Below the pieces are notes generated by a model. That model did not search any database. It was not told where the DNA came from and saw nothing but the letters and a program-made list of their open reading frames with translations. This document shows positions 9-9,458 of a stretch of DNA of 58,164 bases, piece by piece. The translations under genes were made by a program, and so were the position numbers. Source of the stretch: Aminobacter aganoensis (lineage in GTDB: Bacteria > Pseudomonadota > Alphaproteobacteria > Rhizobiales > Rhizobiaceae); the NCBI RefSeq assembly GCF_014206975.1, contig NZ_JACHOU010000026.1, positions 1 to 58,164 on the forward strand, written 5' to 3'. Each line of letters starts with the position of its first letter. Position 1 is the first letter of the stretch.

Positions 9-704
9 TCAGGCGCCGCGGAAGCCGCGGGCGCGGGCGTTTTCAAGCGCAGCGGCCTTCACCGCCGCATCGTCGGCCGAGCCATTCGACAACCCGTTGA
101 GGCCAGACATATGCTGCTGACCGCCGAAGGTGGTCAGCGGCACGTCCTTCTCCTGCCCGGGCTCGAAGCGAACGGCGGTGCCCGCGGCAATGTCGAGGCG
201 CATGCCGAAGGCCGCCGCGCGGTCGAAGTCGAGCGCCTTGTTGACCTCGAAGAAATGATAATGGCTGCCGATCTGCACCGGACGGTCACCGGTGTTGACA
301 ACCTTGAGCGTAAGCTTGCGGCGTCCGGCATTGAGTTCGATGTCACCCTCCTCGGCAACGATGGCGCCGGGTTCGACATCGTCTGCGGTCGCGCCGGCGG
401 CCGGGCGCAGCGGTTCGTGCACGGTGACCAGCTTGGTGCCGTCGCGGAACGTCGCCTCGACCTGCAGCATCGGCAGCATTGCCGCGATCCCGGGCATGAC
501 GTCGGCCTGGGTCAGGATGGCCGAGCCGATCGACATCATCTCGGCGACCGATCGCCCTTCCCTGGCACCTTCGAGGATCTCGTCAGTGATGATCGCCACC
601 GCCTCGGGATAGTTGAGCAACAGGCCCTTGGCCCGGCGCTTGCGCGCAAGTTCGGCCGCCGTGTAGATCGTCAGGCGCTCGAGTTCGGTCGGTGTCAGCA
701 GCAT
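9..704 (-). CDS. ureAB: Urease gamma-beta fusion subunit (UreA-UreB)
   Basis: Structural part of the cytoplasmic nickel urease, which hydrolyses urea to ammonia and carbamate. Residues 1 to about 100 are the gamma domain ([14 protein letters not shown], then [20 protein letters not shown]). From about residue 112 ([18 protein letters not shown]) to about 205 is the beta domain, with [17 protein letters not shown]. The 231-residue length equals gamma plus beta, so this is a true fusion and not a read-through. The start follows GAGGAG at good spacing, and that site overlaps the ureF stop, so the two are probably translationally coupled. The catalytic subunit UreC is not in the window and is expected just past the left edge. 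Last gene seen of the amiCR-urt-ure module. Confidence 0.95.
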
Positions 705-716
705 GGTGTGAACTCC

Positions 717-1400
717 TCAATTCGAAAACAGGCGCTGGCCCGAAGCGCCGTGCAGGGCGACCGCGATCTCGCAGAGCGGCGTAAACGACCGCAGCGGCTC
801 GTCGTCGCCGACCGGGGCGCGGGCTGCGGCCTCGATAGCAGGCAGGGCGCGCGCGACAACCTTCTGCGCGTCAATGGCACCGCTCACGCCGAGCCGCACC
901 GCGGCAGTCGCCAGTGACGCCACCATCTGGTAGCCGCCGATCGCAACGGCACTCGCCTCATCGAGTTCCAGCGCCTGCCATGCCAGCCCTTGCACAACAG
1001 CCAGGTGGCCGCAGGCTTCGCCCTTGCGGACCATCGCGCGATAGGCGGCAGCGCCCCTCGTCCCAATCCGCTCATGTGTCGTCAGCAGCGCCATGCCGTT
1101 GCGGCGCGAGCCAGATCGCAGCCCCTCGACAAAGGTCGAGGCCTCGACCTCGCGATCGAGTTCGGCCAGCGCCTCAAGATCGCCCGCGAGTCGAAAAGCC
1201 CGCACCAACGCGACGCGATCAGCGGCGGCCCAGCGATGGCGGATCTGGATATCGACGAAGCCGGCAAAGTCGAAGGCGCCCAGTTTCCCGGCAAGCGTGG
1301 ACGACGCCTCCAACCCCTGCGAAAAGGCAAAGCCGCCGGAGGGAAACTGCCCATCGGCATGTTGCAGGGCGACGAGTAATTGTGCCGATGGGATGCTCAT
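717..1400 (-). CDS. ureF: Urease accessory protein UreF
   Basis: Chaperone of the UreDFG complex that loads nickel and CO2 into apo-urease; cytoplasmic. The 227-residue protein has the UreF N-terminal signature (QHADGQFPSGGFAFSQGLE, residues 13-31) and a mostly helical remainder, with normal family length. Its ATG overlaps the ureE stop by four bases (1397-1400), which indicates translational coupling. It lies between ureE and ureAB, 12 bases before ureAB. Accessory genes ahead of the structural genes is less common than ureDABCEFG. Confidence 0.93.
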   Translation of the reverse strand: MSIPSAQLLVALQHADGQFPSGGFAFSQGLEASSTLAGKLGAFDFAGFVDIQIRHRWAAADRVALVRAFRLAGDLEALAELDREVEASTFVEGLRSGSRRNGMALLTTHERIGTRGAAAYRAMVRKGEACGHLAVVQGLAWQALELDEASAVAIGGYQMVASLATAAVRLGVSGAIDAQKVVARALPAIEAAARAPVGDDEPLRSFTPLCEIAVALHGASGQRLFSN

Positions 1401-1849
1401 TCGGCCTCCTCGGCCATCTCGACGCGGCCGCCGGAGATAAGCTGCTCGATGCGTGCGGCGTAAGCCGAGGCAGGACCGTCCTGCGCGACAAGCAGATCCT
1501 CGCCGTCGAAGCGCACCCGCCAGTGCAGATTGCCGGCGTGATAGCCGAGTTCGAGCGCATCGCTCGCCGAACGCGGCGTGAACCTGAGCCAGCGCTGCTC
1601 GCCGGCGCGCACGATCACGGCGCGATGGTGGTCGAGCACCAGCACCGCGCCGTCATGCAGCTTCTGGTCGCGCGGCAAGGTGATCGCCACCTCTTCGCCC
1701 TTGTCGGTCTTGGCCATCAGCCGTCGGCGGTCGAGATCACCTGCCGCTACCGTCACGAACTCCACCGCATGGTGGTGTTCGAGATGATGAATGGCCTCAT
1801 GCAAGACCGGATCGTTGCGGCTGCCAAGCACACTTTCAACTCGGAGCAT
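1397..1849 (-). CDS. ureE: Urease accessory metallochaperone UreE
   Basis: Nickel-binding metallochaperone that delivers Ni2+ to the urease assembly complex. 150 residues. The N-terminal half has LDRRRLMAKTDKGEEVAITLPR, typical of the UreE beta domain, and the C-terminal half has ELGYHAGNLHWRVRF, in which the conserved metal-binding histidine of the GNxH motif is present. The His-rich C-terminal tail of some UreE proteins is missing; the protein ends in acidic residues (EMAEEAE). It starts 50 bases after urtE and overlaps ureF by four bases, so transporter and urease genes form one transcription unit. Confidence 0.92.
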   Translation of the reverse strand: MLRVESVLGSRNDPVLHEAIHHLEHHHAVEFVTVAAGDLDRRRLMAKTDKGEEVAITLPRDQKLHDGAVLVLDHHRAVIVRAGEQRWLRFTPRSASDALELGYHAGNLHWRVRFDGEDLLVAQDGPASAYAARIEQLISGGRVEMAEEAE

Positions 1850-1899: not shown

Positions 1900-2595
1900 C
1901 TACAGGCCCATATGCTTGTGGATCAGCTCATTGCTGAGATTGGCGGTGTCACCCTCGGCAGCGATCTGCCCCTTCTCCAGAATGGCGAAGCGGTGTGCAG
2001 CGGTACGGGCGAAACGTATCTTCTGCTCGACCAGGATGATGGTCAGGCCATGATCCCGGTTGAGCGACACGATCGCCTCTTCGATATGCTCGACGATGTT
2101 GGGCTGGATGCCCTCCGTCGGTTCATCGAGAACCAGGATGCTCGGATCGGTGGCAAGCGCGCGGGCAATTGCCAGCTGCTGCTGCTGTCCGCCCGAAAGA
2201 TTGGTGCCACGCCGGTTCAGGTGGTCCTTCAGGAACGGAAACAGCGTCCAAACCAGTGGCGGCACCGAGGTCTGGCCATCCGCCCGGGCGTTGCAGCCGA
2301 GCAGGATGTTGTCGAGCACGCTGAGCCCGGGCACGATCTCGCGCCCTTGCGGAACATAGCCGATGCCGCGCCGCGCCCGCTGGTAGGTGAGGTCGCCACT
2401 GATGTCGGCGCCTTCGAACTCGATGGTGCCTTTGGTGTTCACGGTGATGCCGAGCAGGCTGCGCAGCAGCGTCGTCTTGCCGACGCCATTGCGCCCCATG
2501 ATGCAGAACACCTCGCCCTTGCGGATTTCAAGGTTGAGATCGTGGATGATGTGGCTGGTTCCGTAGAACGCATTGAGGTCTTTGAACTTAAGCAT
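1900..2595 (-). CDS. urtE: Urea ABC transporter ATP-binding subunit UrtE
   Basis: LivF-type ATPase of the urea uptake transporter, on the cytoplasmic face. 231 residues from the chosen start. It has Walker A GRNGVGKTTLL near residue 38, ABC signature LSGGQQQQLAIARAL and Walker B ILVLDEPTEGIQP; the EGIQPN stretch after Walker B is typical of UrtE rather than LivF. The start at MLKFKDLNAFYG is preferred over a start seven codons upstream because homologues begin here. It overlaps the urtD stop by eight bases (2588-2595). Confidence 0.93.
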   Translation of the reverse strand: MLKFKDLNAFYGTSHIIHDLNLEIRKGEVFCIMGRNGVGKTTLLRSLLGITVNTKGTIEFEGADISGDLTYQRARRGIGYVPQGREIVPGLSVLDNILLGCNARADGQTSVPPLVWTLFPFLKDHLNRRGTNLSGGQQQQLAIARALATDPSILVLDEPTEGIQPNIVEHIEEAIVSLNRDHGLTIILVEQKIRFARTAAHRFAILEKGQIAAEGDTANLSNELIHKHMGL

Positions 2596-3382
2596 GGCTG
2601 AGCGTCGCCGATCCAAGATAGGCCTCGATCACTGCGGGATTGCCTTCGATCTCCTCCGCGGTTCCCTCGGCAAGGACAGCCCCCTGGTGCATCACGGTGA
2701 TGGTCTCGCAAATGCGGCGAACGAAGGCCATGTCGTGCTCGATCACCAGCACCGTGTGGCTGCCCGCGAGATCGAGCAGCAGCTCCGCCGTCTTGTCGGT
2801 CTCGGCCGCCGTCATGCCGGCGGCGGGCTCGTCGAGCAGGATGATTTTTGGATCCTGGCTCAGCACCATCGCCAGTTCGAGCCATTGCAACTGGCCATGC
2901 GACAGTTCCGATGCCTTGCGCTTCAGCGAGCCGAGCAGGCCAGTCCGTTCGGCAACCGCGATCTCCTTGTCGTTTGGCCCTGGTTTCACCCGGTCGAACA
3001 GGTTCTGGAAGACGCGGACACGGCGGTTGCTCGCCACCTGCAGGTTTTCCAGTACCGTCATGTCCTTGAACACTGTCGGCGTCTGGAACTTGCGGCCGAC
3101 GCCGCTGCGAGCGATCGCGGCTTCGCCTATGCCGGTGATATTGCGGTCGCGAAGCCAGATCTCGCCCTCGGAGGGCAGTGTCTTGCCGCACAGAAGGTCG
3201 AGCAAAGTCGACTTGCCGGCACCGTTGGCGCCGATGATCACCCTAAGCTCGCCGTCGGCGATCGACAGGTCGACGTCGCGCACGGCGGGAAATTCGTCGA
3301 ACCGTACCGTCAGTTTCTGTGTCCGCAGGATCGGCACCGCCGACACGGTCTCCATCTTCGATGGCCTATGAACGGCATTCAT
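2588..3382 (-). CDS. urtD: Urea ABC transporter ATP-binding subunit UrtD
   Basis: LivG-type ATPase, partner of UrtE in powering urea import. 264 residues. Walker A is GANGAGKSTLL, the signature is LSHGQLQWLELAMVL, where the usual SGGQ is SHGQ as in other UrtD proteins, and Walker B is IILLDEPAAGM, followed by the H-loop VIEHDMAFV. The first ten residues could be an over-extension, with an internal ATG at METVSAVP as alternative. Three bases separate it from urtC upstream and it overlaps urtE downstream. Confidence 0.93.
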   Translation of the reverse strand: MNAVHRPSKMETVSAVPILRTQKLTVRFDEFPAVRDVDLSIADGELRVIIGANGAGKSTLLDLLCGKTLPSEGEIWLRDRNITGIGEAAIARSGVGRKFQTPTVFKDMTVLENLQVASNRRVRVFQNLFDRVKPGPNDKEIAVAERTGLLGSLKRKASELSHGQLQWLELAMVLSQDPKIILLDEPAAGMTAAETDKTAELLLDLAGSHTVLVIEHDMAFVRRICETITVMHQGAVLAEGTAEEIEGNPAVIEAYLGSATLSHA

Positions 3383-3385
3383 CGG

Positions 3386-4555
3386 TCACGCCTCCCTTGC
3401 GGTCAGTTCGGTCTGGACGCGCTCGGACTTGTCGGAGCGTTCAGTCTTGCCGGAGGGCCTTGTCTCGCCGAGCCGCTCGGTCCTGCCGTTGCGTTCGATG
3501 AACGCCTTGAAGATTCCGGCGATGCCGTTCGGCATGAACAGCACGACGACGACGAAAAGCAGCCCCAGGATAATAGGCCACACCGGCTGGAAAGTCGCGC
3601 TTTCGCTGGCAAGCGAGCCGACGAAGTTGACGATCAGCGCGCCGATGCAGGCGCCAAGCAGCGACGCACGACCACCGGTCGCCGCCCAGATCACCATCGA
3701 GATACTGAGTGACGTCGCCATCAGCGACGGCGTGGCGAATTCCGATGTGAGCGTGAACAGCATCCCGGCCAGGCCGGCGACGCCGGCTGAAACGCAGAAG
3801 ATGAAGAGCTTGAAGTTCTCGACATCGTAGCCGAGGTAGCGCGCGCGTGCCTCGTCCTCACGGATGGCCTTGAGCACCTGGCCGATACGTCCGGTCAGCA
3901 TATAGCGGGCGAGCAGGATCACCGCGATCAGCGTGAAAGCGACGGCGTAATATGCGCTCGGACCATAGGGGTCGAACTCGAAGCCGCCGATCTCCAGCAG
4001 TGCCAGGTCGGCCAGACCATTGAAGCCGCCGGTCAGCGGCTGGTTGTTGATGATGAGCAATTGCCCGATAAGGGCGAAGGCCAGCGTGATGATGCTGACA
4101 TAGACGCCCGTCGTACGCCGCTTGAACATGACGTAGCCGATGCCGGCCGCCAGGATGCACGGCACGACGATGCCCGCAATCATGCCAACCGCGACCGAGC
4201 GGAACGGGATCCATAGGAACGAGCCCGTGGTGACGCAGCAAAGGTCGCGAACCGCGTTCGGTTCCATGTTGAGCAGCATGAGCTGCGGCACCGGATTGTT
4301 TTCCGGAACGGCAAGCGTCAGCGACATCGCCAGCATGTAGGCGCCCATGCCGAAGAACAGCCCCTGGCCGAGGCTGAGGATGCCGGCATAGCCCCACGAC
4401 ATGCTGATGCCGATCGCGCAGATCGAATAGACCAGGTAGATCGCGACACGGTTGGTCCAGAAGCTGTTGAGCACCAGCGGAAGCGCGAGCACAACGGCGA
4501 AGAAGGCGATGTAGGCGATGATGGAAGCGGTGCGGTAAGTCATGCGCTCGTCCAT
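3386..4555 (-). CDS. urtC: Urea ABC transporter permease UrtC
   Basis: LivM-type inner-membrane permease for urea. 389 residues with about ten hydrophobic segments, the family motif SMSWGYAGILSLGQGLFFGMGAY near residues 50-75, and the conserved permease loop AIREDEARARYLGYDVENFKL. The C-terminus carries a charged cytoplasmic tail of about 35 residues rich in K, R, E and S (SGKTERSDKSERVQTE) that is longer than in many homologues. An in-frame ATG four codons in (MTYRTAS) is an alternative start. It follows urtB by 13 bases. Confidence 0.92.
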   Translation of the reverse strand: MDERMTYRTASIIAYIAFFAVVLALPLVLNSFWTNRVAIYLVYSICAIGISMSWGYAGILSLGQGLFFGMGAYMLAMSLTLAVPENNPVPQLMLLNMEPNAVRDLCCVTTGSFLWIPFRSVAVGMIAGIVVPCILAAGIGYVMFKRRTTGVYVSIITLAFALIGQLLIINNQPLTGGFNGLADLALLEIGGFEFDPYGPSAYYAVAFTLIAVILLARYMLTGRIGQVLKAIREDEARARYLGYDVENFKLFIFCVSAGVAGLAGMLFTLTSEFATPSLMATSLSISMVIWAATGGRASLLGACIGALIVNFVGSLASESATFQPVWPIILGLLFVVVVLFMPNGIAGIFKAFIERNGRTERLGETRPSGKTERSDKSERVQTELTAREA

Positions 4556-4568
4556 GTTTCAGCCAAGC

Positions 4569-5459
4569 TCAGCGGCTCTTGGTGACGAAGAGGCCCTGAG
4601 GCTTGAAGAGGAGAATGAAGATGACGACGGCAAACAGGACTGTCCGTCCGTAGACGTCGTTTGCCCAGGTGGCGACAAAGCTCTGGACCTCGCCGAGAAT
4701 GCCTGCCGAGGCAAAAGTGCCGAGCAGATGGCCGACACCGCCGGCGACCACGACGAGGAAGGCGTCGACGACATAGGGAGTGCCCATGTCGGGCGACACG
4801 GTCTTGAAGCCCGAGACCAGCACGCCGGCGATGCCTGCAAGCCCGGAGCCGTAGGCGAAGGCCAGCATGTTGACGCGCTTGTCGTTGATGCCGCAGGCGG
4901 CCGCCGTGTTGCGGGCGACCGAGACGGCACGCAGTTGGCTGCCGAAACGCGTCTTGTAGATGAGCAGCCAGGTGATGGCGCCCAGAGCCAGCGCGGCCAC
5001 GAACACGAAGGCTCGATAGACCGGTATGTTGGCGCCGAAAACGCGGATGGCCTGTTGGAGTTCGGCGGGAACGGGCACGTTCTGCAGGTCCGAGCCGAGG
5101 CCATCGATCTCGACGCCGAACAACCCGAGCCCGAAGTGGATCCGGATGAGTTGCTGCAGGATGAGGGCGATGCCCCATGTCGCCAGCAAGGTATCGAGCA
5201 GCCGCCCGTACAGCCTGCGCACGACGGTGCGTTCGATGATCAGCCCGAATGTCGCCGTCACCAGGAATGCCAGCGGCAGGCAGAGATAAATGTTGATGCC
5301 GAGATGCTTGGTCGCCAGCACCGTGGTGTAGGCGCCGATCATCACCATCTCGCCATGGGCGAGGTTGATGACGCTCATGGTGCCGTAGATGATTGCCAGG
5401 CCAAGGGCGACCATGAACAAAATCGATGCGATGCTCAGTCCGATGACAAAAGTTTCCAT
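4569..5459 (-). CDS. urtB: Urea ABC transporter permease UrtB
   Basis: LivH-type inner-membrane permease pairing with UrtC. 296 residues of mostly hydrophobic sequence, with ALGLAIIYGTMSVINLAHG near the N-terminus, a family hallmark, and a conserved GGVGHLLGTFASAGILGEVQ loop near the C-terminus. This is the short form, without the roughly 200-residue N-terminal extension seen in some UrtB proteins. It is separated from urtA by 74 bases that contain a stable hairpin (5490-5517). Confidence 0.92.
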   Translation of the reverse strand: METFVIGLSIASILFMVALGLAIIYGTMSVINLAHGEMVMIGAYTTVLATKHLGINIYLCLPLAFLVTATFGLIIERTVVRRLYGRLLDTLLATWGIALILQQLIRIHFGLGLFGVEIDGLGSDLQNVPVPAELQQAIRVFGANIPVYRAFVFVAALALGAITWLLIYKTRFGSQLRAVSVARNTAAACGINDKRVNMLAFAYGSGLAGIAGVLVSGFKTVSPDMGTPYVVDAFLVVVAGGVGHLLGTFASAGILGEVQSFVATWANDVYGRTVLFAVVIFILLFKPQGLFVTKSR

Positions 5460-5533: not shown

Positions 5534-6781
5534 CTAGAGCGTCGCTCCGCTTGTCGTGCAGACCCGCTTTTCGGCCGTCTCGCCGACACTGGAGTAAGGC
5601 AGCGGCACAAGCGGCTCGGCATACTGGTCGACGATGTCGAGCAGGCCGTCGGCACGTGTCTTGCCGATGCGCGGCGTCAGGTAGCTGTGCAAGTTGTCCG
5701 GGTCGATGGTGACCTTGCCCTGGGGCGCGGCGAAGGACAGGCCGCCGACATTGGCAACGATCGCCTCCGGGGCGAGGTCGCCCGCCTTTTCCGCAGCCAT
5801 CGCCCACATGTTGACGCCGACATAAACCGCTTCCATCGCAGCGTGGGTCACGGCATCAGGGCCAGCATAGGCCTTAAAGGCCTCGACGAAGACCTTGTTC
5901 TCAGGCGTGTCGACGGTCTGGAAATAGGGCAGCGACACGTAGCTGCCGAGCGCATATTCGGGGCCCATCGCCTTGATCTCGACCTCCGTCGTGGTCGAGG
6001 CGCAGAGGGGCAGCTTGTCGAAATCGTAACCCTGGTTGCGCAGCTCGCGGTAGAACGCAACGATGGAGTCGCCTACCACGTTGGAGAAGATCACGTCCGC
6101 GCCGCTGGATCCGATCTTCGAGACCATCGACGCCCATTCGGTGTGCCCGAGCGGCAGGTATTCGTCGCCGACAACCTGCATGCCGATCTTTTCGCAGATT
6201 GTCTTTGACGTCTTGGCCATTCCGCGCGGGAAGGCATAGTCGGAGCCGACGATGAAGACCTTATTCTTGCCGAGGCTCTTTTGCAGCCACGGGAGGGAAT
6301 TTTCCAGCTGCTGGTTGGGCACCGCAGAGCCGGCATAGAGCACGTTCTTGGAGCACTCCTCACCTTCGTACCAGGTCGGCCAGACGAGCAGGCCCTTGCG
6401 CCGCTCGACGACAGGCAGAACCGCCTTGCGGCTGGCAGTGGTGTAGCAGCCGAAGATCACGGGAACCTGGTCCTCGATCGTCAGCTTGCGCGCCTTTTCG
6501 CTGTAGATGCGCGGTTCGGACGCCGGATCCTCGATGATCGCGCGCAGCTTGCGGCCAAGGACGCCGCCCTTGGCGTTGATCTCGTCAATCGCCATCTGGG
6601 CGCACTGGTTCATCGACTTCTCGACGATCGCGGTGGTGCCCGTCAGTGAATACATGATCCCGACCGGGATCTCCTCCGCGGCCCAAGCCTTGTCGCCGAG
6701 GCGCAGGATCGCCGGAGCCGCAAGTCCAACAGCGGCCAGGCCCGATACCTTCAAAAATGTACGCCGATCATGGTTGTTCAT
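5534..6781 (-). CDS. urtA: Urea ABC transporter substrate-binding protein UrtA
   Basis: Periplasmic urea-binding protein that delivers substrate to UrtBC. 415 residues. The N-terminus MNNHDRRTFLKVSGLAAVGL is a twin-arginine (RRTFLK) signal followed by a hydrophobic core and AWA, so export by Tat is likely. The mature part begins EEIPVGIMYSLTGTTAI and contains FGCYTTASRKAVLPVVE and LLVWPTWYEGEECSKNV, typical of the UrtA/AmiC branch of type I binding proteins. The start at 6781 is chosen because AGGAGG lies just upstream; an upstream in-frame start would disrupt the Tat signal. First gene of urtABCDE, downstream of the amiCR leader. Confidence 0.94.
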   Translation of the reverse strand: MNNHDRRTFLKVSGLAAVGLAAPAILRLGDKAWAAEEIPVGIMYSLTGTTAIVEKSMNQCAQMAIDEINAKGGVLGRKLRAIIEDPASEPRIYSEKARKLTIEDQVPVIFGCYTTASRKAVLPVVERRKGLLVWPTWYEGEECSKNVLYAGSAVPNQQLENSLPWLQKSLGKNKVFIVGSDYAFPRGMAKTSKTICEKIGMQVVGDEYLPLGHTEWASMVSKIGSSGADVIFSNVVGDSIVAFYRELRNQGYDFDKLPLCASTTTEVEIKAMGPEYALGSYVSLPYFQTVDTPENKVFVEAFKAYAGPDAVTHAAMEAVYVGVNMWAMAAEKAGDLAPEAIVANVGGLSFAAPQGKVTIDPDNLHSYLTPRIGKTRADGLLDIVDQYAEPLVPLPYSSVGETAEKRVCTTSGATL

Positions 6782-7158
6782 TGTTCCTCCTGTCGCATCT
6801 TTGTGCGTTGGCTTTTTTGAAGCCGCCCCATTCGCGGCCACATACAAGATGTATTAGAAAAATATAATATGCAATACATCGCAACTATATTTTTCTTGTA
6901 TACTTAGAAAGTAGGACACATTCTCAATATCCGCACTTTATAACGCGAAAAATACCAAAATAGTCAGAATGTTGATTTATAGATGCTTTCTATCTATTTC
7001 ATCTCTCTCCTTGTCGCGCGGAAGGAACGACATAAGCAACCGGGGTGCTCGACTAGGTCAAAGCGACGCCGCGCACGCGTTCGCACGCGCTGCCCAATGA
7101 GCGTCAAGAAGTGCTGCAGTTAGAACCAAACGGCTGCCAACAGCCTTGTCGGAAGCCG

Positions 7159-7202
7159 AAAAACAAAAAAGCCCGCCAACTCCGTTCAGGAGTTTGCGGG
7201 CT
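7159..7202 (-). terminator. Intrinsic terminator in the amiR-urtA leader
   Basis: On the minus strand AGCCCGC-A-AACTCC pairs with GGAGTT-G-GCGGGCT (13 bp plus one A.G mismatch, loop of five). TTTTTTG and a further T-run follow directly, so this is a strong rho-independent terminator. It lies about 80 bases after the amiR stop and before urtA, exactly where an AmiR-type antiterminator should act. Confidence 0.85.
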
Positions 7203-7238
7203 ACCTAGCCTCTGGTGCGGACCCCCTTGTCTCACACC
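7199..7238 (-). promoter_or_regulatory. Candidate ANTAR-binding dual hairpin
   Basis: Hairpin P1 (7214-7238) has a 9-bp stem (GGTGTG and GAC against GTC and CGCACC, one bulged A) closing the hexaloop AAGGGG. It has A at loop position 1 and G at position 4, as the ANTAR RNA consensus requires. Three bases further, P2 (7199-7210) is GGC-TAGGTA-GCC: G at loop position 4 fits, T at position 1 does not. P2 uses bases 7199-7202, which are also the base of the terminator stem, so P2 and terminator are mutually exclusive. That is the arrangement expected for AmiR-type antitermination. Confidence 0.6.
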
Positions 7239-7281
7239 GTACCGACGACCGAGGTTCACCCGGCGTCAATTAAGTTTCATA

Positions 7282-7890
7282 CTAGTCACGCATCTCCTTA
7301 AACGTCAAGAGTTCATGTGCATTAATGATCGCACTCGCGAGATCGTCCATCGGAACGCGTTTTGCCATGGCTTGCCGGCGTATGTTCTCATAGGCGTCCT
7401 GCTCACTAAGCCCTTGCGTTTCCATCAGAATACTCTTCGCGCGCAGGATGCGGTTGTTGCCGGCCAGCTTCCGTTCCAGTTTACGGATCCGCTTGCTGGC
7501 GTTCTGCCGCTCGAGCCAGAGCGCGCGTGCAATCGTTAGATTGGTCAGCAGGCCGAACGGACGGATCGGCCGCTCGATGACCGCCAGTGCCCCGCATTCC
7601 AGCACCACCTGCAGCGTGCTCGGATCCTCGTAGGTGACCACCGCCAGCAACGCCGGATCGGACGGCTGCACCGGCCGGAACAGGCTCAGTATCTTGTCGC
7701 GGTTCTCCTGCTCGATCGAAACCAGCACTGCCACCGCCGAAGGGTTGATGGCGTCGGGCAAAGGCCAGGTCGTCTCGCAACTGCAGCCGATGCGCCTGAG
7801 ATGCTCGACCAAGGCCAGCCCCTCCTGGTCCGGCGGGTGGATGACTTGGACGCGCAAGCCCTTCAGGTCTTGGAGTATCCTGGTTGGCAC
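7282..7890 (-). CDS. amiR: ANTAR-domain antiterminator, AmiR family
   Basis: RNA-binding antitermination regulator. 202 residues: an N-terminal receiver-like domain (about 1-125) without the usual phospho-acceptor motifs, as in Pseudomonas AmiR; a short coiled-coil linker (ERQNASKRIRKLERKLAG); and a C-terminal ANTAR domain (about 140-200) with ILMETQGLSEQDAYENIRRQ and conserved Ala/aromatic positions. It starts with GTG, 13 bases after amiC. In AmiR systems the protein is held inactive by AmiC until ligand binds, then binds hexaloop RNA hairpins to block a terminator. Such a leader lies immediately downstream, before urtA. Confidence 0.88.
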   Translation of the reverse strand: MPTRILQDLKGLRVQVIHPPDQEGLALVEHLRRIGCSCETTWPLPDAINPSAVAVLVSIEQENRDKILSLFRPVQPSDPALLAVVTYEDPSTLQVVLECGALAVIERPIRPFGLLTNLTIARALWLERQNASKRIRKLERKLAGNNRILRAKSILMETQGLSEQDAYENIRRQAMAKRVPMDDLASAIINAHELLTFKEMRD

Positions 7891-7903
7891 CGAAAACGAT
7901 CCG

Positions 7904-9058
7904 CTATGCTTTGCGTTTCAGTTGATGGGGCTTGCTCATCCAATCATCGAATGATGCCGTGACGAAATAGGGATCCGGCCTAACCCGTGTTTCGGACTGC
8001 CAGATAACGTCGAACTTGCCCTCGGCGTTGACCCGACCGATGCGCGACCACAGCTCGGTATGGTGGTTGTCAGGATCGATGCGGATCCGCCCTTGCGGCG
8101 CATCGAATTCCAGCCCTGCGAGGTGCTTGGCCAGCGCCTCCGGCTCGTCTGAGCCAGCCAGTTCCAGCGCCTTGGCATAAAGATGGACCTGGAAATAGGC
8201 AGCCTCGGCGCCCGCTGTGACAGGAGCATTGGGGCCAAAGCGCTGCTTGTAAGCCGAAACAAACAGCCGCGCCTGCGGGGTGTCGAGCGTTTCAAAGAAC
8301 GATGCCGAGGTCAGATGCCCTGCCGCAATCGACGGCGCCATCTCGGCGACCTCCGCTTCGGTTGTCGTCAGGCTGGCGATCGGCATCGTCGCGACGTCGA
8401 AACCGGCCTCCTTGTAGGCCTCGTAGAGCATGACCGCGCCGGTGCCGACCACCGTCGACACGACGATGTCCGGCTTCAGCTTGCCGATCTGCTTGATGAC
8501 CCGATCGAAATCCTTGCGAACGGCTTCGACGGGCACGTAGAGTTCGTTGAGAATGGTGCCCTTGGCTCTAGTGACCAGGTCCATCACGACGCGGTTGTAC
8601 TCGTAGGGGAACACATAGTTCGAGCCGACCAAGAGGAAACGCGTGCCGTAATTCTCGATCAGGTAGCGCGCTAGCTGGACGGCGTTCTGGTTCGATGAGG
8701 AACCGGTGTAGAAACAGCGCGTCGAATACTCGAACCCTTCATAGAAGGTCGGGTAGAACAGCATGCCGCGATAGGCTTCGATCTCAGGCAGGACGGCCTT
8801 TCGCGCGGACGACATGTAGCAGCCGAAGATGATCTTGATCCTGTCTTCGGCAAGCAGGCGAACCGCCAGATCCTGATACTTCTTGGCCGAACATTCCGGA
8901 TCGTAAAAGACCGGCGTAATCTGGCGCCCGAGAACGCCGCCGGCCGCGTTGATCTCTTCGACTGCAAGGCGTGTCGCGTTCGATTCAGCCATCTCGGCCG
9001 CAGCGGTTACCCCGCTGCTGGAAAACAGGACGCCAATCCGCCAGTCACCATTCGCCAT
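7904..9058 (-). CDS. amiC: AmiC-like cytoplasmic amide/urea sensor
   Basis: Type I periplasmic-binding-protein fold used as a negative regulator of AmiR. 384 residues, beginning MANGDWRIGVLFSSSGVTAA without any signal peptide, so it stays in the cytoplasm, unlike its paralogue UrtA in the same cluster. Shared family segments include INAAGGVLGRQITPVFYDPECS, FGCYMSSARKAVLPEIE and LFYPTFYEGFEYS. Gene order amiC-amiR matches the Pseudomonas amidase regulator. Ligand is inferred to be urea or a short amide from the urt-ure neighbours. Confidence 0.85.
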   Translation of the reverse strand: MANGDWRIGVLFSSSGVTAAAEMAESNATRLAVEEINAAGGVLGRQITPVFYDPECSAKKYQDLAVRLLAEDRIKIIFGCYMSSARKAVLPEIEAYRGMLFYPTFYEGFEYSTRCFYTGSSSNQNAVQLARYLIENYGTRFLLVGSNYVFPYEYNRVVMDLVTRAKGTILNELYVPVEAVRKDFDRVIKQIGKLKPDIVVSTVVGTGAVMLYEAYKEAGFDVATMPIASLTTTEAEVAEMAPSIAAGHLTSASFFETLDTPQARLFVSAYKQRFGPNAPVTAGAEAAYFQVHLYAKALELAGSDEPEALAKHLAGLEFDAPQGRIRIDPDNHHTELWSRIGRVNAEGKFDVIWQSETRVRPDPYFVTASFDDWMSKPHQLKRKA

Positions 9059-9317
9059 GCGCTATAAGCCACCTATTGAGCAGGTCGATATACTACCCGG
9101 TCATCGGCTCGAGCCGGGTGGAGTCTGCTTTGGGAAATTTGGGAAACGCCACTGTTTCCAGTCCCATAGAGATAACCTGACAGCTAGGGAAAGGCAACGC
9201 GAGCTCTGCGGTGCCGCCATTCAATCTACATTCGACAGACGGCAGGCCGTGCCCTCGCAATGGGCGGCGGTCGAGGAACCGCCCCGCCACTCGCAGGGCG
9301 GCCCTTGCCACGAACCG

Positions 9318-9458
9318 TCAGGCGTTGCCGGTGAGCATGTCGTAAAGCGCCAGTGTCACCACGTTGGTCGCCAGGACGAGGTCGTCGATCTTGAGCTTTT
9401 CGTCGGCGCGATGCGCATTACCCTCGAGCATCGTTCGCGGACCGGCGCCATGCGACGC
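9318..9458 (-). pseudogene. Peptidase M20 (ArgE/DapE-like) C-terminal remnant
   Basis: The minus strand encodes GAGPRTMLEGNAHRADEKL followed by KIDDLVLATNVVTLALYDML and a stop. That is the C-terminal end of M20-family metallopeptidases or deacylases, including the conserved EGNAHRADE segment. Nothing upstream continues the protein: the sequence before it (SSSQTPRYSPQASH) is unrelated. Only about 45 codons of a protein of about 400 residues remain. Confidence 0.6.

What the first reader, a model, noticed from the sequence alone, without database searches (positions are those of the whole stretch)
7159..7238. AmiR-type antitermination leader in front of urea transporter and urease genes
Seen: an intrinsic terminator with U-run (7159-7202), a hairpin with hexaloop AAGGGG that fits the ANTAR consensus (A1, G4), and a second hairpin (GGC-TAGGTA-GCC) that shares four bases with the terminator stem, so the two exclude each other. 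Known: AmiC-AmiR regulates by ANTAR binding to paired hexaloops. Inference: ligand-bound AmiC releases AmiR, which holds the hairpins and lets RNA polymerase reach urtA. The second loop lacks A at position 1, so it may be a variant recognition element.
Basis: partly seen in the sequence, partly recalled or inferred. Interest (0 to 1): 0.75.

Follow-up and report, generated by a model that had tools for sequence, protein, structure and literature searches.

The report
RNA switch before urea-use genes
In a soil bacterium an RNA on-off switch of a known type sits between a sensor-regulator gene pair and genes for taking up and breaking down urea-like compounds; it is conserved in relatives but departs from the textbook form, and many relatives share an extra, unexplained hairpin just after the stop signal.

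Summary
On the minus strand, between amiR and a urt-ure operon of an Aminobacter genome, lie P1 (7238-7214, hexaloop AAGGGG), P2 (7210-7199, GGC[UAGGUA]GCC) and an intrinsic terminator (7202-7170, U-run to 7159) sharing AGCC with P2. In 13 related leaders P1 and the terminator show compensatory changes, and P1 loop positions 1 and 4 alone never vary. A model of the leader hits strongly exactly the 7 of 10 genus genomes that carry this AmiR. Antitermination by AmiR is well supported; binding was not tested.

(1) P2 has U, not A, at loop position 1 in 13 of 13 leaders, always with A at position 6. The same change cripples EutV control (PMC3369931). (2) A third hairpin, P3 (7152-7137), with the ANTAR-like signature AC[ANNGNN]GU follows the terminator: in 21 of 25 distinct leaders of urt-linked loci with AmiR at 48% identity or more, and 0 of 24 other leaders. 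Rhizobium/Agrobacterium leaders show P2 and P3 but no canonical P1 hexaloop. P3's role is unknown. Verdict: a new variant of the ANTAR antiterminator.

The parts
7904..9058 (-). amiC-like ligand sensor, probably cytoplasmic
   Evidence: Pfam Peripla_BP_5; phmmer best hit P. aeruginosa AmiC 1PEA, E 1.5e-95. The protein starts MANGDWRIGVLF, with no obvious signal peptide (read by eye)
7282..7890 (-). amiR, AmiR_N + ANTAR antiterminator protein
   Evidence: Pfam AmiR_N E 1.8e-33, ANTAR E 5.4e-16; PDB 1QO0 AmiR and 6WSH EutV matched
7241..7270 (-). P0, hairpin upstream of P1 with a GUGAA-type loop region; role unknown
   Evidence: a hairpin is predicted in all 13 related leaders, -5.9 to -17.9 kcal/mol
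7214..7238 (-). P1, hexaloop AAGGGG with A1 and G4, closing pairs GAC/GUC
   Evidence: 13 leaders: 94.9% of cells paired, 3 pairs changed on both sides; loop positions 1 and 4 invariant, 2, 3, 5 and 6 vary
7199..7210 (-). P2, GGC[UAGGUA]GCC, overlaps the terminator's 5' arm
   Evidence: stem invariant in 13 of 13; loop U1, G4, A6 invariant, 2, 3, 5 vary
7159..7202 (-). intrinsic terminator (stem 7202-7170) with U-run
   Evidence: -23.3 kcal/mol, z -4.95; 3 pairs with two-sided changes in 13 leaders
7137..7152 (-). P3, CCGAC[AAGGCU]GUUGG, ANTAR-like hairpin starting 12 nt after the first U tract
   Evidence: AC[ANNGNN]GU in 21 of 25 distinct urt-linked leaders (AmiR at least 48% identical), 0 of 24 others; helix counted
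5534..6781 (-). UrtA-like substrate-binding protein, first gene after the leader
   Evidence: TIGR03407 401.8 bits, below cut-off 492.75
1900..5459 (-). urtB, urtC, urtD, urtE
   Evidence: NCBIfam equivalogs TIGR03409, 03408, 03411, 03410 above cut-off
9..1849 (-). ureE, ureF, fused urease gamma/beta subunit
   Evidence: UreE and gamma/beta by NCBIfam; UreF by Pfam PF01730, E 4.3e-25

Best explanation
It is an ANTAR-type antitermination leader in an operon whose regulators come first. RNA polymerase transcribes amiC-amiR and, without ligand, stops at the terminator that begins about 80 nt after amiR because AmiC holds AmiR. When AmiC binds its ligand (urea or a related amide), AmiR is freed, docks on P1 and stabilises P2. 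P2 uses the AGCC at the base of the terminator, so the terminator cannot form, and polymerase reads on into the urt and ure genes. Shown: the elements, their conservation, their mutual exclusion by sequence, and the adjacency to an AmiC/AmiR pair. Inferred from the P. aeruginosa, Klebsiella and Enterococcus systems: binding, ligand release and read-through. P3, after the terminator, is most likely a further AmiR site on read-through RNA (inference, weaker).
For: AmiR and AmiC identified. P1 and terminator covary in 13 leaders (Aminobacter genus, Mesorhizobium, Aestuariivirga, Labrys). P1 loop: 10 distinct sequences, only positions 1 (A) and 4 (G) invariant. Leader model R1 hits, at E 5.5e-18 or better, exactly the 7 of 10 genus genomes with the close AmiR, at one place each, and 4 of 247 family genomes, all four with the close AmiR. 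Many more distant AmiCR loci carry analogous hairpins before urt, urease or nitrilase genes, though not all AmiR loci do. Window AmiR has Tyr and Met aligned with EutV Tyr164 and Met172 (alignment, taking the chain index as 2 ahead of the paper's numbering; roles from PMC8934654 passages).
Against: P2's first loop base is U; in eutP the A53U change in L2 reduced induction (PMC3369931 section 7). The P1-P2 linker is only 3 nt (4 in the other 12 leaders), and shortening the eutP linker to 3 nt was harmful. P2's stem is invariant, hence unsupported by covariation. The 377 nt between U-run and urtA could hold a separate promoter. The residues matching EutV Arg142 and Lys143 are Asn in this AmiR (my reading of the alignment). 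Some related AmiR loci show no readable P1-P2 after amiR (for example L010, L012).
Confidence: 0.85

Rival explanations
1. The terminator simply ends the amiCR transcript; urtA has its own promoter in the 377-nt gap, and the hairpins are incidental or part of a 3' UTR.
For: The gap between amiR and urtA is long in the window (500 nt in all) and its urtA-proximal part AT-rich. No transcript data exist here to exclude a promoter.
Against: P1 loop positions 1 and 4 are kept while 2, 3, 5 and 6 drift, which a bare terminator does not explain. P2 overlaps the terminator in all 13 leaders. Leader and close AmiR occur together in 7 genus genomes and were both not found in the other 3 (one of the 3 is only 81% complete). 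In R. leguminosarum L098 and Shinella L103 the whole amiR-urtA gap is only about 250 nt. Sigma-70 and sigma-54 consensus scans found no more than chance (a weak test).
Confidence: 0.1
2. P2 is not an ANTAR hexaloop at all but a 4-bp stem GGCU/AGCC with a tetraloop; AmiR binds only P1 (and P3), and P2 is a plain anti-terminator hairpin held by neighbouring protein.
For: U1 always comes with A6 (13 of 13 here; also in the 10 nitrilase- or transporter-linked rows labelled U1, letters read by eye). RNAfold draws the tetraloop. G4 would then be tetraloop position 3.
Against: G4 is invariant in all 13 although positions 2, 3 and 5 change, as expected of a base read by the ANTAR domain. The loci L097, L111 and L176 (AmiR 71-72%) have an A1...A6 loop, which cannot pair, at the same place.
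Confidence: 0.3
3. P3 is a DNA operator or a chance inverted repeat rather than an RNA site.
For: It is a near-palindrome; within each clade part of the likeness is shared descent. No other AmiR group counted has it.
Against: The window's clade keeps a G.U pair in P3 (GAC/GUU, 13 of 13), which is not a DNA palindrome. The stem differs between lineages (CCGAC/GUUGG, CUGAC/GUCAG, CGGAUC/GAUCCG) while A1 and G4 persist. Shuffled sequence gives it in 0-2.5% of trials per locus.
Confidence: 0.25

Closest known systems
P. aeruginosa AmiC-AmiR amidase system (amiE leader)
   Same: AmiC sensor and AmiR antiterminator are homologous. According to PMC3369931 (section 7 read) the amiE leader also has two hexaloops, with A and G at positions 1 and 4, at a terminator.
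   Different: Here amiCR come first and the leader lies between amiR and a urt-ure operon. P2 has U1 instead of A1, and there is an extra hairpin P3 after the terminator. I did not fetch the amiE leader.
EutV / eutP dual-hexaloop antiterminator (Enterococcus)
   Same: P1 = AC[ANNGNN]GU, P2 overlapping the terminator, ANTAR protein with matching Tyr and Met.
   Different: L2 U1, linker 3-4 nt instead of 5-12, and an AmiR_N (pseudo-receiver) domain beside an AmiC gene instead of a phosphorylated receiver.
ANTAR RNAs found upstream of urea transporters by covariance search (PMC3369931, section 10 read)
   Same: That paper already lists urea transporters among genes with predicted ANTAR RNAs, so the link between ANTAR control and urea uptake is not new.
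   Different: Its search model kept A1 and G4 in both loops, so the U1 form might score poorly. The supplementary tables could not be read here, so I cannot say whether these loci are among its hits.
NasT / NasR nitrate antitermination (PMC6759348, PMC7496416, passages read)
   Same: ANTAR protein binds a hairpin leader and stops termination.
   Different: Different sensor, ligand and genes. SELEX with NasR preferred A1 and G4 and a C:G closing pair (PMC7496416 passage).

Membership tests
ANTAR dual-hexaloop antiterminator RNA | two hairpins of at least 3 bp just before an intrinsic terminator | tested here: met
ANTAR dual-hexaloop antiterminator RNA | second hairpin overlaps the terminator stem | tested here: met
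   AGCC 7202-7199 shared; same columns in all 13 leaders
ANTAR dual-hexaloop antiterminator RNA | A1 and G4 in the first loop | tested here: met
   13 of 13
ANTAR dual-hexaloop antiterminator RNA | A1 in the second loop | tested here: not met
   U1 in 13 of 13; hence filed as a variant, not as a plain member
ANTAR dual-hexaloop antiterminator RNA | G4 in the second loop | tested here: met
   13 of 13
ANTAR dual-hexaloop antiterminator RNA | second loop really open as a hexaloop | tested here: inconclusive
   U1-A6 can pair; RNAfold prefers a tetraloop
ANTAR dual-hexaloop antiterminator RNA | linker of 5-12 nt (eut) or 2-25 nt (actinobacterial set, PMC8164766) | tested here: inconclusive
   3 nt here, 4 in the other 12: outside the first range, inside the second
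ANTAR dual-hexaloop antiterminator RNA | binding by the ANTAR protein and suppression of termination | not testable with these tools
   needs EMSA and in vitro transcription
AmiC-AmiR regulatory pair | adjacent AmiC-like sensor and AmiR_N-ANTAR protein | tested here: met
AmiC-AmiR regulatory pair | ligand-controlled release of AmiR | not testable with these tools
   no assay
UrtABCDE urea transporter | UrtB, C, D, E models above cut-off | tested here: met
UrtABCDE urea transporter | UrtA model above cut-off and urea-contact residues kept | tested here: not met
   TIGR03407 401.8 < 492.75. By the alignment to 8HIC, Trp120, Ser122, Tyr141 and Gln144 (named in PMC10392092) are Tyr, Thr, Trp and Trp; Glu146 is kept (residue matching done by eye)

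The most novel reading that the evidence does not exclude
AmiR leaders of urt operons form a three-site ANTAR switch: a recruitment hairpin P1, a terminator-overlapping P2 whose loop is closed by a U1-A6 pair (tetraloop-like) in one clade, and a third site P3 placed after the terminator, onto which AmiR is handed as polymerase escapes. In the Rhizobium/Agrobacterium form only P2 and P3 carry canonical loops, so the recognised pair would straddle the terminator, which the present two-hairpin model does not allow.
Probability: 0.3. Interest if true: 0.72.

Novelty: new variant of a known kind. Interest (0 to 1): 0.5.

Why it matters
The rule for ANTAR targets (two hexaloops, A1 and G4 in both) is used to find these switches in genomes. 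Here nature fixed, in 13 of 13 leaders, the very substitution (A1 to U in the second loop) that cripples EutV control, while G4 is untouched. That fits the EutV crystal structure, in which G4 is contacted and A1 is not, and gives ready-made material to test what A1 is for. A conserved ANTAR-like hairpin after the terminator has no place in the models I read; if AmiR binds it, the cycle of recruitment, hand-over and release becomes testable in a simple plasmid system.

Tried and rejected
Rfam scans: no match at gathering score; at relaxed E-values three weak hits (BcKCsr2 E 0.12, CRISPR-DR28 E 3.3, DUF805b E 4.5), all below their gathering scores. Promoter scans: sigma-70 1 found against 1.2 expected in 6700-9400; sigma-54 consensus 34 against 30.6 expected in the whole window; uninformative. 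The tool's terminator scan did not list the 7202-7170 terminator, probably because of its internal mismatch.

P3 was first counted by stem (A1/G4 hexaloop, 5 bp or more: 13 of 17 urt-linked, 0 of 16 others), then by the signature AC[ANNGNN]GU (21 of 25 distinct regions from 29 urt-linked loci, 0 of 24 distinct others from 25 loci). 'Urt-linked' there means a UrtA-like gene downstream and AmiR at 48% identity or more. Against the reading: L064 and L065 (AmiR 30-34%) also precede a UrtA-like gene, were put among the others and lack P3; the tandem-module loci (L013-L019, L110, L178), which also precede a UrtA-like gene, were not counted. One 'other' region (L163) followed the wrong U-run, so 23 of 24 are properly placed. 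In the nitrilase loci the next start codon seems to come soon after the U-run, so their lack of P3 is weak evidence; L097, L111 and L176 have room and lack it. Misses among urt-linked: L056 and L058 have none; L051 has G1; L057 has another closing pair (it counted as present).

A link between the residue matching EutV Met172 and loop pairing was explored. All 10 U1 rows of the nitrilase- or transporter-linked group have Thr there, and all 7 distinct P1 loops I listed for it have complementary bases at 1 and 6, against 6 of 19 hand-picked loops of Met types (Fisher p 0.005). The Met list was not exhaustive (L014, L019, L064, L065, second modules, Rhizobium-type triloops, L059, L061 and L103 were left out), three of the seven Thr-group loops have A at position 4 instead of G, and Thr may have a single origin, so this is a lead only. 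The window's AmiR has Met.

The 50 rows of the tree are only loci in which I could read a P2; AmiR loci without a readable P1-P2 (for example L010, L012, L020-L033, L105, L109) were left out. L106 and L163, whose P2 loop UGGCAA lacks G4, were also left out and count against a strict G4 rule; so does Roseibium L110, with A at loop position 4 in the first module. Three changes of the U1 label on the tree may be one gain and two losses, so 'two origins' is not shown.

Full report
What is there. The window is contig C26 of a 5.76-Mb genome; its close AmiR relatives in named records are Aminobacter species. On the minus strand the order is amiC, amiR, a leader, a UrtA-like gene, urtB-E, ureE, ureF, and a fused urease gamma/beta subunit at the contig end. 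A plasmid of Aminobacter sp. SS-2016 carries the same order, continuing to ureC.

The leader. Read 5' to 3' on the minus strand: amiR stop at 7284-7282; P0 (7270-7241); P1 (7238-7214); P2 (7210-7199); terminator (7202-7170, U-run to 7159); P3 (7152-7137); then 355 nt to the urtA start at 6781. The terminator folds at -23.3 kcal/mol with z -4.95. P1 and the terminator can coexist; P2 and the terminator cannot, since they share AGCC.

Conservation. Leaders of 13 genomes (seven of the window's genus, three Mesorhizobium, one Aestuariivirga, two Labrys) align from amiR's stop to P3. P1 has 94.9% of cells paired and three pairs changed on both sides; the terminator 96.4% and three pairs. Sliding the partner columns by 1-3 drops pairing to 30-55%. 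In P1 loops, 10 distinct sequences occur and only positions 1 (A) and 4 (G) never change; in P2 loops 1 (U), 4 (G) and 6 (A) never change; in P3 loops position 4 never changes and position 1 is A in 12 of 13. This pattern of fixed and drifting loop bases is what ANTAR recognition predicts, and a bare terminator does not explain it.

Company. A covariance model of P1 to terminator finds one strong site (E 5.5e-18 or better) in 7 of 10 genus genomes, the same seven that carry AmiR at 93% identity or more; in the other three neither was found (AmiR at E 1e-30, leader at E 0.3 or worse; one of them is 81% complete). In 247 family genomes it finds four strong sites, all with AmiR at 87% or more. 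The next best places are the reverse strand of the window's own terminator (E 1.4e-4) and then E 7.5e-4 elsewhere. So the leader and its AmiR travel together, with one such target per genome at this sensitivity.

Relatives further away. Shinella plasmids (AmiR 72%) put the same kind of leader before ureE, with P2 GGC[AGUGUA]GCC; L176 (71%) looks alike (gene read by eye). Rhizobium, Neorhizobium and Agrobacterium plasmids (AmiR about 51%) carry amiR-urt, mostly with an annotated amiC, with P2 GGC[AAGGRU]GCC, or in L099 GGCA[AGCGGG]UGCC, and P3 CUGAC[AGUGAC]GUCAG (AGUGAA in L100); the hairpin at P1's place has a three- or four-base loop. L099 is telling: the P2 loop region gained two bases, yet a hexaloop with A1 and G4 is still offered. 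AmiR loci followed by a nitrilase-family gene (Pfam CN_hydrolase in L008, L009, L011, L068, L069, L071, L104; annotated in L107, L186) have P2 loops such as UAUGUA and UAAGCA. Loci L013-L019, L110 and L178 have two leader modules in tandem (read by eye).

The second loop. PMC3369931 (outline, passages, and sections 7 and 10 read) defines the target by A1 and G4 in both loops, and reports that A53U in L2 of eutP reduced induction. Here U1 is the fixed state. On a tree of 50 AmiR proteins the U1 label needs 3 changes of state, at least 2 forced by well-supported branches, and the two identical Shinella AmiRs next to the window's clade have A1; gains and losses cannot be told apart. PMC8934654 (passages read) reports that Tyr164, Glu160 and Arg142 contact G4, that A1 has no specific contact, and that Met172 plugs the loop, is essential for binding and may exclude tetraloops. 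The window's AmiR has Tyr, Glu and Met at the matching places. U1 with A6 would allow a fourth P2 pair and a tetraloop; whether the loop opens on binding is open.

P3. Within 45 nt after the U-run, AC[ANNGNN]GU occurs in 21 of 25 distinct leaders of urt-linked loci with AmiR at 48% or more, and in 0 of 24 others; mononucleotide shuffles gave it in 0-1.8% of trials per locus. A stem-based count with dinucleotide shuffles gave 13 of 17 and 0 of 16, chance 0.3-2.5%. Two of the others (L064, L065) also precede a UrtA-like gene, and the tandem-module loci were not counted. Many of the 25 are close relatives, so the independent number is smaller; the stem differs between the Aminobacter-type, Rhizobium/Shinella-type and Bauldia lineages. 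The closing pairs AC/GU are those whose exchange disrupted induction in eutP P1, although PMC8934654 describes the stem contacts as limited to the backbone. P3 is made only after polymerase has passed the terminator, so it cannot help the first decision. Candidate roles: acceptor of AmiR from P2, titration of AmiR by read-through RNA, or protection of the urt mRNA. None is tested. A search for papers with ANTAR and third-hairpin terms found none in the held library, and 'third stem' and 'three stem' do not occur in PMC8164766; subscription papers and supplements were not available.

Ligand. AmiC matches P. aeruginosa AmiC best. The UrtA-like protein falls below NCBI's UrtA cut-off and differs at several urea-contact residues listed in PMC10392092 (passages; alignments). 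Urease genes downstream point to urea or a compound that yields it, but the inducer is not settled.

Verdict. As a device it works like an ANTAR antiterminator; because the second loop fails the A1 rule and a third conserved hairpin is present, I file it as a new variant of a known kind.

Noticed in passing
window 7137-7152 (minus strand); same place in L098, L102, L103, L059, L061: Hairpin P3 with an ANTAR-type loop directly after the terminator, in 21 of 25 distinct urt-linked leaders with AmiR at 48% or more.
   Followed up: partly
window 7241-7270 (minus strand) and the same place in 12 related leaders: Hairpin P0 with a GUGAA-type loop region between amiR and P1; stems differ while the loop region is largely kept. 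Role unknown.
   Followed up: no
L008, L009, L011, L068, L069, L071, L074, L104, L107, L108 (AmiR and leader): These AmiRs, mostly before nitrilase-family genes, have Thr where EutV has the essential Met172, and the 7 distinct P1 loops listed for the group all have complementary bases at positions 1 and 6 (A-U, U-A or C-G), as if the target were a tetraloop.
   Followed up: partly
L098, L099, L100, L102, L112, L113, L168, L169: Rhizobium/Agrobacterium-type urt leaders show no canonical P1 hexaloop (triloop or tetraloop instead) but keep P2 and P3.
   Followed up: partly
L013-L019, L110, L178: Two hairpin-terminator modules in tandem between amiR and a UrtA-like gene; several second modules have G or U at loop position 1.
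   Followed up: no
window 5534-6781 (minus strand): The 'UrtA' is below NCBI's UrtA cut-off and lacks several urea-contact residues, so the transporter may carry a urea analogue.
   Followed up: partly
L106 and L163, leader after amiR and AmiR itself: P2 loop UGGCAA with C at position 4, an exception to the otherwise near-universal G4; both AmiRs have Phe in place of the Tyr that stacks on G4, but so has L064, which keeps G4.
   Followed up: no
G000 contig C16, L003/L040: The same genome has a second AmiR (37% identity) with canonical loops AACGUU and AAAGAA before a terminator, upstream of a hydantoinase gene; one search also lists a further A1/G4 hexaloop hairpin some 65 nt downstream, also present in L039.
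   Followed up: no
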